A DNA stretch of 64,000 nucleotides from Chytriomyces cf. hyalinus JEL632 (Eukaryota > Chytridiomycota > Chytridiomycetes > Chytridiales > Chytriomycetaceae). Position numbers and translations under genes: made by a program. Every line of letters begins with the position of its first letter. The stretch's first letter is position 1. Shown in pieces: positions 33,984-40,648 of the stretch. The DNA is taken from NCBI GenBank assembly GCA_025435555.1, contig JAIWWG010000044.1, positions 62,001 through 126,000 on the forward strand. Direction: 5' to 3'. Below the pieces are notes generated by a model. The model was not told the origin of the DNA, did not search any database, and saw nothing but the letters and a program-made list of their open reading frames with translations.

Positions 33984-35980
33984 TCATCCGCGGCCATGCA
34001 CCCAGTACGTGTTCATTGTACCTTTGCCCTTGATGTTCATGACATCCGGTCCCTCAATCTTGAAGCCCTTCTTGTTGATGAGCTTGTACGTTGCTTCAGA
34101 GATGTGAATGCTCATTGGCTTGGATGTGGATTCCATCCTATCAAAAAAGAACAACTCTTAGTTACTCTCGCTTAACTCAGAAACCAAGCGGGCTTCTCCT
34201 ACCGCGAGGCGGTATTGACAGCATCACCGACAATACACCAATGTGGGTTACTGTCACCCAAAATACCCGCCGTAATACATCCCGAATTCAAACCCACACG
34301 CGTGACAAGCTCTTCCCCACTGTCTGTTCTGAAATCAGAAACCATACGAATCACATCAATCGCAAAGTTCGTGGCACGTTCGGCGTGATCCGGGATTCGT
34401 TCCGGTGCTCCAATCACTCCGAGGAAGGCATCACCGATCGTTTCAACCTTGTACATTCCCCAGCGCTTGCAAATGACGTCGTACTCTACCCAGAGTTTGT
34501 TTAGCATCGCCAGCATTTCTTTGGTCGAGTGTTTTGAGGAGAGCGCGATAAAGTTGGTGACGTCTGAGAAGAAAACTGTCACGGACGCGTACTCTTCGGA
34601 TCCAGTAGCTTTTCCTGCCTTCATGGCTTCAACGATACTGTGTCAAGGACAACGTTTAGGCGACATGGAGAACAAACTGTGTGCACAAGAGTATATACCT
34701 CGGCGGCATGAGCTTCTCGAGCAACTTGTCAGCCTGCGCCATCTGCGACTGAATCTCATCCGCAATACCTTCCATGCGCTTCGCCTTTGCATTCATACTC
34801 TCCTCCAACGTTGCATTCACCAAAATCAGCGTCAAAAACACTTTTGCCAAAATATCCGACCCACAAAACATCAACTCCCCAACTTCATACGAAACAATCT
34901 GGGCTCGCTGCACATACCACGTGAGCGTAAACGCATTCCACGCGGCAAGAGTCACGTATTTGGCCGTGGTGAGGGATTTTGCATCAAGTTTGCAGCTGGT
35001 TTTGCCTTGGATTGCGCTATTGTACATTTCGCTCAAGTTCCAGATTGTGTAGAAAAAGAAGATGGTTGATGTGCAAGCAAAGAATTCGGAGAAAGGTTGC
35101 TTGAAGATGCATGCAAAGTAGCCGAGCGCAATCAGTGTGTAATCGTAGGTGGCGGTGGGGTCGGCCATGGCGTGGTTGTCGGTGATTTCGGCAATCAGGT
35201 AAATTCTGAACAAACCGAACTTTGAGCAAGCACAAAGCCACATCCACACACTAACCGGAATTAAAACTCACAAAATGGGGCATGTTGTAAGCCATTCCAA
35301 AAAGCGACAGGGGTCCACAGGGTACCCAACGTAATCCGTAAACGTGGGAGTCAGTTCAAGGGCTTGAATAATGTACGTCGACATGGCAATGAAGTTTACA
35401 AGCACCAAAACCTGAACAAAAAAAAGTGAATCAGACGCGCTTCCGTCAAATCGACTTGCCGAATCGTAAACATTTGTCCAAAAAAATTTTCTCGCACCTT
35501 TCCAAGATCTCGTTTCTCATTGTTCTGGGCATTGGCATAAGCAATGTAAGAATACACCACCGCAATCAAAAACCCGCCGGCAGTATACGCGTACGCGTCT
35601 TTGGAAATGCCACGGTCAAACACAGGCTTCTTGTACCCATTGGACAGCAGATACATTCCAAACCCGGTCAAAACGACCCACACGGCGAAGTTTCGAAGCA
35701 CATAGTAAACAGCACCCGAAACATCTTTTTCTTTTTTAGCCTCATTGAGCTTTTCCTTCCAGTTGATCTCTGAAGGGAAGTGTTAACAGACACGCGTTTT
35801 GAAGGAGAATAGAAGGCTCACTCAACTGCCGCCAGCTTTACGGGCTTCCTTGACAACAATCTGATGGAAAACGGCACCGTGCCCGCAACCCCGGCAACGC
35901 TTTGTTCCCGATTGGATCTGATACACGGAGCACGTGCAGTTCTCGCAGTTTGCACGTTGATTGTCGTCCACGGATGTCAT
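33984..35980 (-). CDS. Rhodopsin-guanylyl cyclase A, catalytically complete
   Basis: Six exons (35827-35980, 35498-35769, 35272-35411, 34699-35205, 34203-34637, 33984-34137) give 553 residues. The N-terminal segment has paired Cys (CENC, then CRGCGH), followed by about eight membrane helices. Helix 3 reads FLEWLTTCPIL, placing Glu181 at the counterion position. Helix 7 has SDILAKVF, with Asp306 and the retinal Schiff-base Lys310. A coiled linker follows (NATLEESMNAKAKRMEGIADEI). The class III cyclase domain keeps both metal Asp (383, 427), guanine-selecting Glu423 and Cys492, and the transition-state pair Asn499 and Arg503 (VNTASRMES). It should make cGMP under light control, as its family does. 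It shares a divergent promoter region with gene B. Confidence 0.93.
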
Positions 35981-36345
35981 GGTGGCGAGCGTTTTTTTGT
36001 GGAAGTTTTTTGATGGAAGCGCATTGGAAGGAAAGGAGCAATTCTAAATTTGTTCGGCGCTTTTAAAAAAAAAAATGTGGGCATTGTCTTTTAATAATTA
36101 GGACTTTTGTATAAAATTGACGCGTGCTGTGATAAAGTTTGGGTAGTGAGCAGGGATGTTCATTTTTTTTATTTTGGTTTTTTCCCCGCTCCCTCCGTTA
36201 CCAGTGGGGTAAAGATCCTGGAATTGTTGAAACAAAACGTCGGAGAATTTCAGCCCACTTCCCAAGAAAGAAAAATTGCTTCCACTTTCGGCTCTCTTCC
36301 AGAAGTTCGTATCGGCCAAAAAAAAGATTCCCAAAGGGCGAAACA
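35981..36345. promoter_or_regulatory. Divergent promoter region between rhodopsin cyclases A and B
   Basis: The two start codons lie 365 bp apart and point away from each other. The stretch holds A/T-rich runs (36061-36075) and no coding frame that suits either gene. Co-regulation of the pair is an inference from the arrangement; no specific binding site was identified. Confidence 0.45.
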
Positions 36346-38323
36346 ATGAACAGCCTTCAGAGTAAGCTCCCTCTACTTTTTGCGTCGGCACCGTATACGG
36401 CGTGTCTGACAGCCATGTACATCTCAGAACCAGAAGTAAATGTGGAAAAGGCGCCGTTAATGACGTTCGTTTGGATCAACTTTGGAATGTGGGCCGTTGG
36501 CGTGTACTACACAGTCAGCCAGCGTCTCTTTGGCGGACACCGCGTAAAAGCGTTTGACCGCGGAGACGCCGACTTTTACTACAAGGGCCACTCGTTTGTA
36601 TTTCTCGTTGCAACAGCGTTCGCGTACCTCGGCTACATTGGCACCAAAAACGTTGTCAAGAAGAGTATGATTTGGATCATGTTGATGACAAATTCGGTGG
36701 TTTCGGCAAGTTGGTTTTTGTTGTATCTTCGTGCTGGAGTCACGTTTATGGACAACTCTGGGAACCCGGTGGATACTATTCGACACTTGGAGTGGTTCCA
36801 TGATCAGTCCAACTTGTAAGCATAACGCGTTTTGCAGCATCTTGTGACTTGATCTAAATATTTCAACTAATCGTGGCGCGTTTTGTTTAGGGTGTACGTC
36901 GCCTGCTTGCTCACATCAACAGATTACTGGTCCAGTGGCCGCGCCATTGCCTCTTCACACATGACATTTGTGTTTGGATTCTTGGCATGTCTTGCTCGTC
37001 ACCCGTACGACGAACTCTTTGCAACGCTGTCGATGGTGTCGCACTTGGTGTTGATGCAGGAGGTGATCAAGATGTACCAAAGAGCTATTGACGGCGAGGT
37101 TGAAAACAAGGTGGACCTGTGGACGCTCAAGAGATCTCGTGATGTCATTGTATTTTCATACGCGTACATTACTGTGGCTTGGTACCTTGTCAGAACGTAA
37201 GTATGCGTGGGAATTTGCGTGGATATCATTGGCGACTGACACAAAAACAAAAAACAGACACATTATCCGCTTTGACACTGGAGAACTGCATATTGCGATT
37301 GGTGAATTCATTGCCAAGATTGTATTTATGCTCGTGATTGTCAACAACTCGATGGAGGAGTCCCAAATCAGCGCCGTTCGTGAAATGGACTCCATTACGT
37401 CCAGCATGGATGAGCAGATGGCAGCGTCAGACAAACTTCTTGAGAAAATGATTCCTCCAGCGTGAGAGCTTTTTTTTTATCAAAGAAGCGTCAAGGAAAA
37501 TAACACAAGCAACTACCACGCAATTCAGTGTCCTCGAGCAGTTGAAGAGCGGACGCGCGACGGGAGCCGAAGAGTACGCATCAGTCACAATCTTCTTTTC
37601 CGACATTGCCAACTTTACTCCACTCTCTCAGCGAACATCGGTAGGGGAACAAAAACTGCTGTTCTGGGTAGTGGTATTCAAACAATATTCCTTTTCAGAC
37701 AAAAGACATGCTTGCGTCCCTCAACAACATGTGGGTCGAATACGACGCAATTTCCAAAAAGCATGGCATGTACAAAGTTGAAACAATCGGAGACGCGTTC
37801 CTCGGAGTTGTTGGAGCGCCGGATCGTGTACCGGACCATGCCGAGCGAGCTGCCAGCTTCTCATTGGGTGAGTTTCCTTTTCCTGTTGCATTGTGTGGTA
37901 AACTACAAAAAACCCGATTATATTTTTGCAGACATTATTGAAATGATCCGAGGTTTCCGCCTTGTGACTGGAGAGCCCATCCAGATCCGCGCGGGTCTCT
38001 GTTCCGGACCAGTGACAGCTGGAATCCTAGGCGAAACCAACCCGCACTGGTGTGTCGTTGGAGATACCGTCAGCATCGCGTCCAAGATGGAAGCCACGTC
38101 AAAACACATGAAAATCCACATTGCCGAAAGCACGTATAATCTCGTTAAAGGTTCTGGCAAGTTTGTTACGAGCCAAGGCGAGCCCGTTTCCATCAAAGTA
38201 ACCTCGCTTGCTTCTCTTCTTGTTTACATCAGCTGTCTGACACTTTACATCTCACTCACACTTCATGCTTATGCTTAACAGGGAACAACGCACAACACGT
38301 TTTTTATCGAAAGCCGAGTTTAA
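36346..38323 (+). CDS. NeoR: NeoR-type near-infrared rhodopsin-cyclase (gene B)
   Basis: Seven exons (36346-36815, 36891-37196, 37258-37461, 37529-37640, 37699-37867, 37932-38197, 38282-38323) give 522 residues. The rhodopsin half has Glu149 and Asp153 in helix 3 (HLEWFHDQSNL) and Glu275 four residues before the retinal Lys279 (GEFIAKIVF). The published NeoR triad is Glu136, Asp140, Glu262 with Lys266 as I recall; every spacing here is identical, shifted by 13. A coiled linker follows. The cyclase keeps the metal Asp residues (352, 396), Glu392 and Cys461, but the transition-state pair is replaced by Ser468 and Lys472 (VSIASKMEA). It therefore probably needs a partner such as A. The last, 42 bp exon ends at a stop inside the inverted repeat. 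Confidence 0.88.
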
Positions 38324-38599
38324 ATCTGAATTACTTTATTTATTTATTCTCTTCTCCTGGAATTTATTTAATCGTTGATACGTGTTGGTATCTTGTTGGT
38401 GAGGTATCTTGTTGATACGTGTTGGTGTCGGCGAAAATAACGATTTAATTGGCAAAATTCTCCGATCCGATCTATTTTTAGCAACATTTCACCTCACCAA
38501 CACGTATCAACAAGATACCTCACCAACAAGATACCAACACGTATCAACGATTAAATAAATTCCAGGAGAAGAGAATAAATAAATAAAGTAATTCAGATT
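38323..38599. repeat. Perfect 105-bp inverted repeat after gene B
   Basis: Arm 1 (38323-38427) and arm 2 (38495-38599) are reverse complements with no mismatch that I could find; the loop between them is 67 nt. Each arm holds a direct repeat of the unit GATACGTGTTGGT and ends in an AT-rich run (ATTTATTTATT in arm 1). Arm 1 starts at the last base of the gene B stop codon, so the transcript's 3' end could fold into a long hairpin. Confidence 0.92.
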
Positions 38600-38773
38600 G
38601 GAGGGGGAGGGCAAGGTTGATGATGAAAGGGAGGAGGTTGTAAAACTGCATTTTCGAATATATTTTATTCTTTTTATTTTATTGAAGCTATTCTTTGGAT
38701 TGTCAAGCGCAATAGATTGACCCTCGCCGATTGTTGCAAAAGTTCTGGTCGGAAAAAAAAAAATAAGCCCCGG

Positions 38774-40648
38774 ATGATTGGTACGAGCACCACCTGCGCG
38801 AACCCAATCTTGTTAAACGCCGAATCTTTTAAACTTTACAACTCAGGAGGAAGCAGTGAAGGGACACCCTCATCGACGGGTTATGTCTGGTTTAACTTCT
38901 GTCTCTGGGCCACGGCCGTACTATATTCCATCAGCCAACGTCACGCCATCCAACCCAGCGCCAAGTCGTTTGACCGCGGAGATTCGGATATTTACTATAT
39001 CCTTCAGTCACTGGTCTTTCTGGTAGCCTCGGCTGTCGCGTATGTCTCCTACAAGCGCACGAAGCACGGCGTGAAACAGGCCATGATCCAGGTCCTGATG
39101 CTTGTAAACACTGTAGTCGCAGTCAGTTGTTTCTTGATGTACTTGCGTGCTGGATACACAGTTTTGGATGGCGCTGGGAATCCCGCAGACAGCATCCGAC
39201 ATTTGGCGTGGTTTCATGACCAGTCCGATTTGTAAGCATCTCGAATGCTTTCATCCATTAATATTCATTCACATTTGATGTCCCAGGGTCTATGTTGCTT
39301 GTTTACTCACTGGCACCAACAACACGACACGTGGCAGAGCCACTGCATATTCGCGCATGACGTTTGTGTTTGGATTCTTTGCTTGCCTTGCCCGGCATCC
39401 ATACGATCAATTGTTTGGAACTATTGCGCTGGTTTGTCACTTGAGACTCATGAACGAAATTGTGGACATGTTCCAAGCTGCGATTGAAGGAACACAACGG
39501 GGACAAGGGATCTGTAGCGCAGATGTTTGGAGTCTCGAGCGATGCCGTGAAGTGATGGTATTTTCGTATGGGTATATTAGTGTTTCTTGGTTCCTTGTCA
39601 GGATGTGAGTTTTTTTTTTTTGGATTCCCAAAAAAGCACGCGTGATCAGACCCGCGAATCTGTAGAAACGCAATCCGGTTTGATACCGGGGAACTGCATA
39701 TTGCCGTGGGCGAAGTTGTGGCCAAGATTGTGTGCATGCTTGTCATTATCAACTGCTCGTTTAAAGAGCCGGTCTCTCTCGGCATTGCTGGACAGGGTTT
39801 AGATGGACAAGGTTTAGACGGTGTCGCATCCAGCGAGCCATTGCATGCTGTAGATAAATTAATTCAAGAGTAAGCGTCTTTGCGAGTGTCACGTCACGCA
39901 TTGTCTTCTGATTTTGTTTTTCAGAAATTCGCATCTTTTGTCGACGGGAGACGAATACGCGTGTGCCACAGTGTTTTGCTCCAGCATTGTCGGGTTTAAT
40001 AAGCTTTCGCATCAAACACCCGTGAGACACTTTGGATGAATCCTTGTGTTTTAATTTAAACAGTGTTGTTCTTTGACAGAAAAAGGAAATGCTTATCTTT
40101 CTCAACAACTTGTGGACGAACTACGACGCAATCTCCAAAAAACACGGCATAAAAAAAGTCGAAATCACGGGCGACGCATTCTTGGCCATCGTTGGTGCTC
40201 CTTCTCGCGTTACGGACCACGCAGAGCGAGCGGCGAGTTTTGCATTGGGTGAGTATTGAGCGCGATTCTGGAGTTGTATTGGTCATTCCATTGAATTCAT
40301 TTCAATTCGAATTCAGACATTCTCGAAATGATCAAAAACGTCAAGTCTGTATCCGGGGAACAAGTCCAAATTCGCATTGGGCTTTGCTCGGGGCCTGTAA
40401 CGGTACAATTCGTGGGAGAGATGAATCCAGTCTGGCTTCTTGCTGGAGATTCTGTGAGCACTGCAAAAAGAATGGAAGCCGCGTCGAAACAGTCGAGGAT
40501 ACATGTGTCACAGAGCACGTACAGCTTGATCAAGACCAAGTTTGTAATGAGGCGGTCCGAGCGTGTAAATACAGAGGTGGGTGACTTTGTAACGTCATCG
40601 TATCTTGGCTGTGCAAGCGAGACATTCTATGTGGACGGACGGCTGTGA
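38774..40648 (+). CDS. NeoR-like rhodopsin with degenerate cyclase (gene C)
   Basis: Six exons (38774-39231, 39287-39604, 39666-39869, 39925-40021, 40080-40248, 40317-40648) give 525 residues, with intron positions matching gene B. The rhodopsin half keeps Asp149, Glu275 and retinal Lys279 (GEVVAKIV), but the helix-3 Glu is Ala145 (HLAWFHDQSDL). The linker has lost its coiled-coil character and contains GQGLDGQGLDG. In the cyclase domain the first metal Asp is Ser347 (TVFCSSI), the Cys is Leu456 and the Asn is Ser463; Asp391, Glu387 and Arg467 remain. Retinal binding seems possible, but cyclase activity seems unlikely. The start ATG (38774) is the first in frame; the N-terminus is the least certain part. 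Confidence 0.85.

What the first reader, a model, noticed from the sequence alone, without database searches (positions are those of the whole stretch)
33984..40648. Cluster of three rhodopsin-cyclases: one complete, one NeoR-type, one pseudo-cyclase
Genes A, B and C lie within 6.7 kb: A and B diverge, B and C are in tandem. All three share an intron inside the same Leu codon after helix 3 (phase 2) and an intron after the coiled linker, so they derive from one ancestor. The catalytic residues are divided: A has the full set, B has metals and substrate residues but not Asn/Arg, and C has lost a metal Asp, the Cys and the Asn. This fits a heterodimer logic of the type published for NeoR, plus a third, possibly regulatory photoreceptor. 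Three-gene linkage with a degenerate third member is not something I know to be described.
Basis: partly seen in the sequence, partly recalled or inferred. Interest (0 to 1): 0.95.

Follow-up and report, generated by a model that had tools for sequence, protein, structure and literature searches.

The report
Fungal photoreceptor cluster with dead third copy
A chytrid fungus carries a known kind of paired light-sensing enzyme (a visible-light and a far-red subunit) next to a third, tandem copy that keeps its light-sensing part but has lost the residues its enzyme half needs, and the same broken design is found in two related species, suggesting a possible non-enzymatic role.

Summary
The window is Chytriomyces cf. 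hyalinus JEL632. A is a complete rhodopsin-guanylyl cyclase (RGC). B is an ordinary neorhodopsin (NeoR): losing Asn/Arg is usual in that clade. C is a tandem NeoR paralog without a metal Asp, the base-recognising Cys and the Asn. Two corrections: a divergent three-gene RGC/NeoR cluster is already published for Rhizoclosmatium globosum and called common in chytrids; and an RGC:NeoR heterodimer is already shown to work in C. confervae, which has an RGC 99.1% identical to A. What may be new is C. It has also lost the primary Schiff-base counterion (E136 to Ala) and the helical linker, and the same losses recur in C. confervae and C. hyalinus (3 of 3 C-types). C is sister to B on a long stem. Its rhodopsin exon is under purifying selection (dN/dS 0.13-0.17), its cyclase end much less (0.39-0.49), against 0.02-0.04 for A and B. 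The genome holds a second, diverged copy of the cluster in which C is a pseudogene broken by an insertion. So C is either a retained non-catalytic photoreceptor subunit or a slowly decaying one; sequence alone does not decide. The PNAS 2023 survey of these genes could not be read.

The parts
33984..35980 (-). Gene A, rhodopsin-guanylyl cyclase of the RGC1/2 type (553 aa); exons 35980-35827, 35769-35498, 35411-35272, 35205-34699, 34637-34203, 34137-33984
   Evidence: counterion E, Thr, Asp and full catalytic set; 99.1% identical to a C. confervae RGC P0048
35981..36345 (.). 365-bp intergenic region between the divergent genes A and B, candidate shared promoter
   Evidence: coordinates; bidirectional promoter idea from PMC8815786 and PMC12264004; not tested here
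36346..38323 (+). Gene B, neorhodopsin (NeoR) rhodopsin-cyclase, 500 aa; exons 36346-36361, 36428-36815, 36891-37196, 37258-37461, 37529-37640, 37699-37867, 37932-38197, 38282-38323
   Evidence: identical to P0001; E/D/E triad, K, and S/K in place of Asn/Arg
38774..40648 (+). Gene C, degenerate NeoR paralog (pseudo-cyclase), 503 or 525 aa; exons 38774-38780, 38847-39231, 39287-39604, 39666-39869, 39925-40021, 40080-40248, 40317-40648
   Evidence: identical to P0018; orthologs P0019 and P0044; residues; linker

Best explanation
A and B are the two subunits of a standard heterodimeric chytrid light-activated guanylyl cyclase. A is the visible-light rhodopsin that drives catalysis and supplies the Glu, Cys, Asn and Arg of the one active site; B is NeoR and supplies the two metal-binding Asp. 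C arose by tandem duplication of B, went through a burst of change mainly in its cyclase and linker, and was kept as a rhodopsin with a dead cyclase. It cannot complete an active site with A: as B's substitute it lacks a metal Asp, and at the other site it lacks Cys and Asn. Having lost the helical linker it probably cannot pass a light signal to a cyclase. The retained cyclase fold and the retinal-binding lysine fit a silent photoreceptor subunit: most likely it pairs with A or B as an inactive partner that limits the number of active A:B dimers, with a changed colour. Shown: sequences, losses, the same losses in three taxa, sister relation to B, purifying selection on the rhodopsin exon. Inferred: pairing, colour, attenuating function.
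For: The losses are the same in 3 of 3 C-type proteins; of 53 aligned proteins with a letter at the first metal Asp, 50 have Asp and only the 3 C-types do not. Retinal Lys in 54 of 54. C-type sister to B with UFBoot 100, stem 0.836 against 0.055 for B; AU test rejects two alternatives, p 0.016 and 0.013. Rhodopsin exon of C against its second genomic copy: 13 nonsynonymous, 25 synonymous over 125 codons, dN/dS 0.126-0.167. Domain shift: B to five other NeoRs 60-66% in rhodopsin, 42-69% in linker, 71-89% in cyclase; B to C 64, 27 and 59%. AlphaFold2: both domains of C mostly confident, linker 272-311 below 50 and not a continuous helix; B has one helix 242-300, though its linker confidence is also low. 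Single-site logic from PMC12264004 sections 11-12; working C. confervae RGC1/NeoR1 pair from the discussion of PMC7655827.
Against: C evolves much faster than A: 86% against 99.1% identity to C. confervae. Its second copy in the same genome is a pseudogene, so it is dispensable there. No expression data. Loss of the coiled-coil linker argues against efficient dimerisation. Linkage of C to A is not shown in C. confervae: the listed contigs differ (69,025 and 31,776 bp). The cyclase-only tree does not resolve C (support 41), and the SH test does not reject one of the two alternatives (p 0.06). C keeps an Arg, the second Asp and the Glu.
Confidence: 0.45

Rival explanations
1. C is a dying paralog: redundant after duplication, losing parts gradually, without a present function.
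For: Second copy destroyed by an insertion plus an 11-base deletion; dN/dS about four to seven times that of A and B in the rhodopsin exon, and 0.39-0.49 in the last exon; much lower conservation between species than A.
Against: Reading frame intact in the NCBI models of three taxa; if the 63 differences to C. confervae were random substitutions, about 3 stop codons would be expected and an intact frame had a chance of about 0.03-0.04 (indels ignored). Rhodopsin exon clearly constrained, one-sided p below 1e-6 against neutrality. Retinal Lys and the other two carboxylates kept in 3 of 3.
Confidence: 0.3
2. C is an independent light sensor whose output is not cGMP, in the manner of green-algal Cop5/Vop5, described as having a degenerate cyclase, Cop5 also lacking Asp85.
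For: The combination of counterion loss and inactive cyclase is described in PMC7693036 (passages); in C the rhodopsin exon is more constrained than the cyclase end.
Against: Pfam finds only rhodopsin and cyclase in C, no added output domain; the signalling linker is lost.
Confidence: 0.17
3. C is a screening or energy-transfer pigment in the rumposome that shades or tunes the A:B receptor.
For: Retains lysine and much of the pocket; retinal-to-retinal energy transfer within a NeoR dimer is reported (title, abstract and passages of PMC12046560).
Against: No evidence on abundance; only about 3500 NeoR molecules per zoospore are reported for R. globosum, few for a screening pigment.
Confidence: 0.06
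4. C is an annotation or assembly artefact.
For: A perfect 105-nt inverted repeat lies just upstream of C and could mark an assembly fold-back.
Against: Orthologs in two other genomes with the same losses; its rhodopsin exon and most of the last exon are also present in the second genomic copy.
Confidence: 0.02

Closest known systems
R. globosum RGC1/RGC2/NeoR cluster (PMC7655827, PMC8815786, PMC12264004)
   Same: Three linked genes, one diverging from a tandem pair; heterodimeric RGC:NeoR; same residue sets for RGC and NeoR (checked on P0036 and the stand-in P0005)
   Different: There two RGC and one NeoR; here one RGC, one NeoR and one degenerate NeoR paralog
C. confervae CcRGC1/CcNeoR1 (677 and 362 nm; PMC7655827)
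   Same: Same genus; a C. confervae RGC (P0048) is 99.1% identical to A; functional heterodimer reported in the paper
   Different: The paper's UniProt entries were not matched to P0048 or to B here; the C-type (P0019) is not mentioned in the sections and passages read
Cop5/Vop5 (green-algal modular rhodopsins; PMC7693036, passages)
   Same: Rhodopsin joined to a cyclase without metal, substrate and transition-state residues; Cop5 lacks Asp85
   Different: They carry histidine-kinase and response-regulator parts (recalled); C groups with NeoR, not tested against them
Counterion variants of NeoR in other chytrids (P0004, P0006, P0008, P0089 with Gln; P0016 with Gly)
   Same: Primary counterion Glu replaced
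   Different: P0004, P0006, P0008 and P0016 keep both metal Asp, Glu and Cys; P0089 is a 304-aa protein that ends before the cyclase

Membership tests
Heterodimeric RGC, visible-light subunit (gene A) | Rhodopsin joined to class III cyclase with complete catalytic set, in the RGC clade beside NeoR | tested here: met
   Pfam run on P0048, 99.1% identical to A
Heterodimeric RGC, visible-light subunit (gene A) | Light-activated cGMP synthesis only together with NeoR | not testable with these tools
   reported in PMC7655827 for R. globosum; a functional CcRGC1/CcNeoR1 pair
NeoR (gene B) | Carboxylate triad E136/D140/E262 and lysine 266 | tested here: met
   numbering checked on P0005, 18 of 18 published positions
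NeoR (gene B) | Near-infrared absorbing, bistable, fluorescent | not testable with these tools
   677/362 nm reported for CcNeoR1
NeoR (gene C) | Falls in the NeoR clade | tested here: met
   UFBoot 100 with B; AU test
NeoR (gene C) | Carboxylate triad | tested here: not met
   E136 position is Ala in 3 of 3 C-types; D140, E262 and K266 kept
NeoR (gene C) | Two metal-binding Asp for the shared active site | tested here: not met
   first Asp is Ser in 3 of 3
Class III guanylyl cyclase, active (gene C) | Metal Asp pair, base-recognising Glu and Cys, catalytic Asn and Arg (the last two recalled) | tested here: not met
   S, D, E, L, S, R
Enzymerhodopsin signalling linker (gene C) | Continuous helix from TM7 through a coiled coil | tested here: not met
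   home-made heptad score 0.31-0.43 in 3 C-types against 0.50-0.78 in the 51 others; AF2 models, low confidence in both linkers

The most novel reading that the evidence does not exclude
Chytriomyces fungi have evolved a pseudo-enzyme photoreceptor: a NeoR paralog that lost counterion, signalling linker and catalytic residues, is kept by selection on its rhodopsin, and tunes the neighbouring RGC:NeoR receptor as a light-sensitive silent subunit of altered colour.
Probability: 0.28. Interest if true: 0.75.

Novelty: new variant of a known kind. Interest (0 to 1): 0.52.

Why it matters
Heterodimeric rhodopsin-cyclases are recent and of interest for optogenetics. A paralog that has lost a counterion thought important for NeoR's colour and the residues of the single active site, yet persists in three taxa, is a natural experiment on both: it tests whether the E136 counterion is needed for a stable pigment, and whether a dead third subunit can regulate a two-subunit photoreceptor. 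It would add a pseudo-enzyme layer to fungal vision. If C proves to be decaying, it still shows the order in which function is lost after duplication.

Tried and rejected
Considered and rejected: (1) that B is unusual for lacking Asn/Arg: this is usual in NeoR-type proteins. (2) That the three-gene linkage is undescribed: it is published. (3) That C belongs to another NeoR branch: AU test against, though the SH test rejects only one of the two alternatives and the cyclase-only tree is unresolved. (4) That C is an artefact: orthologs exist. (5) My first model of B without the N-terminal intron, which gave a frameshift in the second copy and was corrected. [quoted passage not shown] no held paper names Chytriomyces together with JEL632. 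The identification of P0048 as CcRGC1 and of B as the CcNeoR1 ortholog was not tested. Pfam at E 0.01 reports no rhodopsin domain in B although the alignment shows one, and no family in P0121. The Foldseek search with the C model listed cyclase structures in its 50 shown rows; the rhodopsin fold was not checked separately.
Full report
WHAT THE WINDOW IS. The window is G000:C182:62001-126000 of a 37.8-Mb, 242-contig genome. Protein B is identical, letter for letter, to P0001 and C to P0018, both 'nucleotide cyclase' of Chytriomyces cf. hyalinus JEL632 on a 278,934-bp contig, the length of C182. The taxon is a chytrid of the order Chytridiales.

CHECK OF THE OBSERVATION. A gives 553 aa, B 500 aa, C 503 aa in the NCBI model (525 aa if its first intron is retained; C. 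confervae's model is of the unspliced kind). The second genomic copy showed that B has an N-terminal intron, 36362-36427, whose sequence has diverged while its flanks have not. A, B and C share a phase-2 intron in the Leu codon after helix 3 and a phase-2 intron after the linker; B and C share three more at the same or neighbouring columns (with the start of C's second exon corrected by one base).

WHAT A AND B ARE. I aligned 54 proteins (51 from a database search, B and C among them, plus A and the second copies of A and B) and read the key columns, using P0005 (Rhizoclosmatium sp. JEL0117) as a stand-in for R. globosum NeoR because it agrees at 18 of 18 published positions. A has the conventional rhodopsin set (Glu, Thr, Asp, Lys) and the complete cyclase set. 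B has the NeoR triad Glu/Asp/Glu. Among NeoR-type rows other than C-types, Arg is Lys in 21 of 22 with a letter there, and Asn is Thr, Ser, Val or Ala in 16 of 20 and still Asn in 4 (JEL0842, Phlyctochytrium planicorne, Dinochytrium, Blyttiomyces). So B is an ordinary NeoR. A is 99.1% identical to a C. confervae RGC, P0048. Broser et al. 2020 report that CcNeoR1 (677/362 nm) and CcRGC1 of C. confervae form a working heterodimer (discussion read); I did not match those UniProt entries to P0048 or B. In R. globosum only one of two sites is active, with base recognition from RGC1 and metals from NeoR (PMC12264004, sections 11-12 read). A and B have the residues for that division.

THE CLUSTER IS NOT NEW. 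In R. globosum all three genes are clustered, rgc1 and rgc2 in tandem and neor on the other strand, and the authors call the arrangement common for such genes in chytrids (PMC12264004 section 7; PMC8815786 section 5). The JEL632 cluster is its mirror: one RGC and two NeoR-type genes.

WHAT C IS. C and two other proteins, P0019 (C. confervae, 86% identical to the 525-aa model of C) and P0044 (C. hyalinus HDU81, 76%, N-terminus missing), form a group with the same losses in 3 of 3: primary counterion Glu to Ala, first metal Asp to Ser, Cys to Leu, Asn to Ser; they keep the retinal Lys, the other two carboxylates, the second metal Asp, the Glu and an Arg. Of 54 proteins, 53 have a letter at the first metal Asp; 50 have Asp and these three do not. 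A profile search with the three gave 18 hits and no fourth C-type, but only 8000 candidates were scored. The linker differs too: it is shortened, rich in Gly and Pro, and scores 0.31-0.43 on my own simple heptad scale against 0.50-0.78 for the other 51. AlphaFold2 gives B one helix from residue 242 to 300, through TM7 and linker; in C the helix ends at 265 and residues 272-311 have confidence below 50. B's linker confidence is also low (block means 39-59), so this is supporting, not decisive.

ORIGIN AND TEMPO. In a 50-protein tree C-types are sister to B and its second copy (UFBoot 100), on a stem of 0.836 against 0.055 for B, with short branches within. With 21 NeoR-type proteins the rhodopsin alone supports this at 96 and all sites at 100; the cyclase alone does not resolve it and puts C beside an MP71 protein with support 41. 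The AU test rejects two other placements, p 0.016 and 0.013; the SH test rejects one of them (p 0.026) and not the other (p 0.06). C's rhodopsin is no further from B (64%) than those of five other NeoRs are (60-66%), but its cyclase (59% against 71-89%) and linker (27% against 42-69%) are: change was concentrated in the output half. Between C-types the two halves are about equally conserved (C to C. hyalinus 80% and 82%, C to C. confervae 92% and 89%), whereas from B to the five NeoRs the cyclase is clearly the more conserved half.

SELECTION. The genome carries a second syntenic copy of the region on contig C215; the four main aligned blocks around the cluster are 82-89% identical. A and its copy give dN/dS 0.022-0.028 (6 nonsynonymous, 68 synonymous), B and its copy 0.030-0.039 (8, 65), by counting with three transition weights. 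The second copy of C is a pseudogene: everything from the intron after helix 3 to about window base 40367 in the last exon is replaced by a longer unrelated stretch, and the last exon has an 11-base deletion. I read the inserted stretch by eye as gag-like with a zinc-knuckle-like motif; Pfam finds no family in P0121, the chimeric protein that NCBI annotates there. The remaining rhodopsin exon still gives dN/dS 0.126-0.167 (13, 25 over 125 codons, one-sided p below 1e-6 against neutrality), the last exon 0.39-0.49 (14.5, 10.5 over 87 codons, p 0.02-0.05). Since one partner is broken, the intact copy's constraint may be stronger. The helix-3 protein stretch with the Ala is identical in both copies, so the counterion was lost before they separated. 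If the 63 differences between C and C. confervae's protein had been random substitutions, an unbroken frame would have had a chance of about 0.03-0.04 (indels ignored). Against full retention: C changes much faster than A (86% against 99.1% identity to C. confervae), its dN/dS is several times that of A and B, and one genomic copy is dead.

HOW IT MOST LIKELY WORKS. A:B makes cGMP in light; that is reported for relatives and inferred here. C cannot form an active site with A: B's place needs two metal Asp and C has one; the other site needs Cys and Asn. So a dimer with C should be silent. Retention of a cyclase fold without activity or linker suggests binding rather than catalysis; hence my first choice, a silent partner that limits A:B. 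The colour of C is open: the E136Q mutant of NeoR has a deprotonated chromophore, which suggests ultraviolet absorption, but the PNAS 2023 paper, which by my recall re-examines natural counterion variants, could not be read.

WHAT IS NEW. Not the cluster, not the heterodimer, not B. The C-type, a NeoR paralog without catalytic residues, counterion and linker, present in three Chytriomyces taxa, is not mentioned in what I saw: sections and passages of PMC7655827, PMC8815786 and PMC12264004; passages only of PMC9616733, PMC9636224, PMC12046560 and PMC10743670; and the listings of paper searches. The nearest precedent is Cop5/Vop5 of green algae, with a cyclase described as degenerate, Cop5 also lacking Asp85 (PMC7693036, passages). 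The name CcNeoR1 may hint that its authors knew of a second C. confervae NeoR. In C. confervae the RGC and the C-type are listed on contigs of different length (69,025 and 31,776 bp), so three-gene linkage with a C-type is shown for JEL632 only.

Noticed in passing
L015 and L017 (contigs C207 and C186): A fourth, unlinked RGC gene (counterion Asp and complete cyclase set, read by eye from its ORFs) lies next to two tandem genes on the opposite strand, in both genomic copies. All four copies carry a cyclic-nucleotide-binding domain by Pfam; their upstream exons look like channel membrane segments by eye, but Pfam finds no family in the four scanned: receptor and possible cGMP-gated channels side by side. 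Genome-wide there are 123 matches to that domain, so chance is not excluded.
   Followed up: partly
38323-38599: Perfect inverted repeat, two 105-nt arms with a 67-nt spacer, starting at the last base of B's stop codon; absent from the second copy of the locus, and a whole-genome DNA search found no other copy. Recent inverted duplication or assembly fold-back.
   Followed up: partly
contigs C182 and C215; C186 and C207: The genome holds two syntenic copies of these regions, main blocks about 82-91% identical, introns and intergenic DNA included: a hybrid, a very divergent diploid or a mixed culture.
   Followed up: partly
L013:5392-8030: The second copy of C is disrupted by a stretch that looks gag-like by eye (no Pfam family found in P0121); NCBI annotates the result as one 477-aa chimeric protein, P0121.
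   Followed up: partly
P0016, Rhizoclosmatium sp. JEL0117: Another NeoR-like protein with all three carboxylates lost (Gly, Gly, Val) but lysine and the D, D, E, C cyclase set intact.
   Followed up: no
P0008, P0011, P0013, P0054, P0089, P0094 (Chytriomyces sp. MP71): Six RGC or NeoR proteins listed with one contig length, 190,912 bp: apparently an expanded cluster.
   Followed up: no
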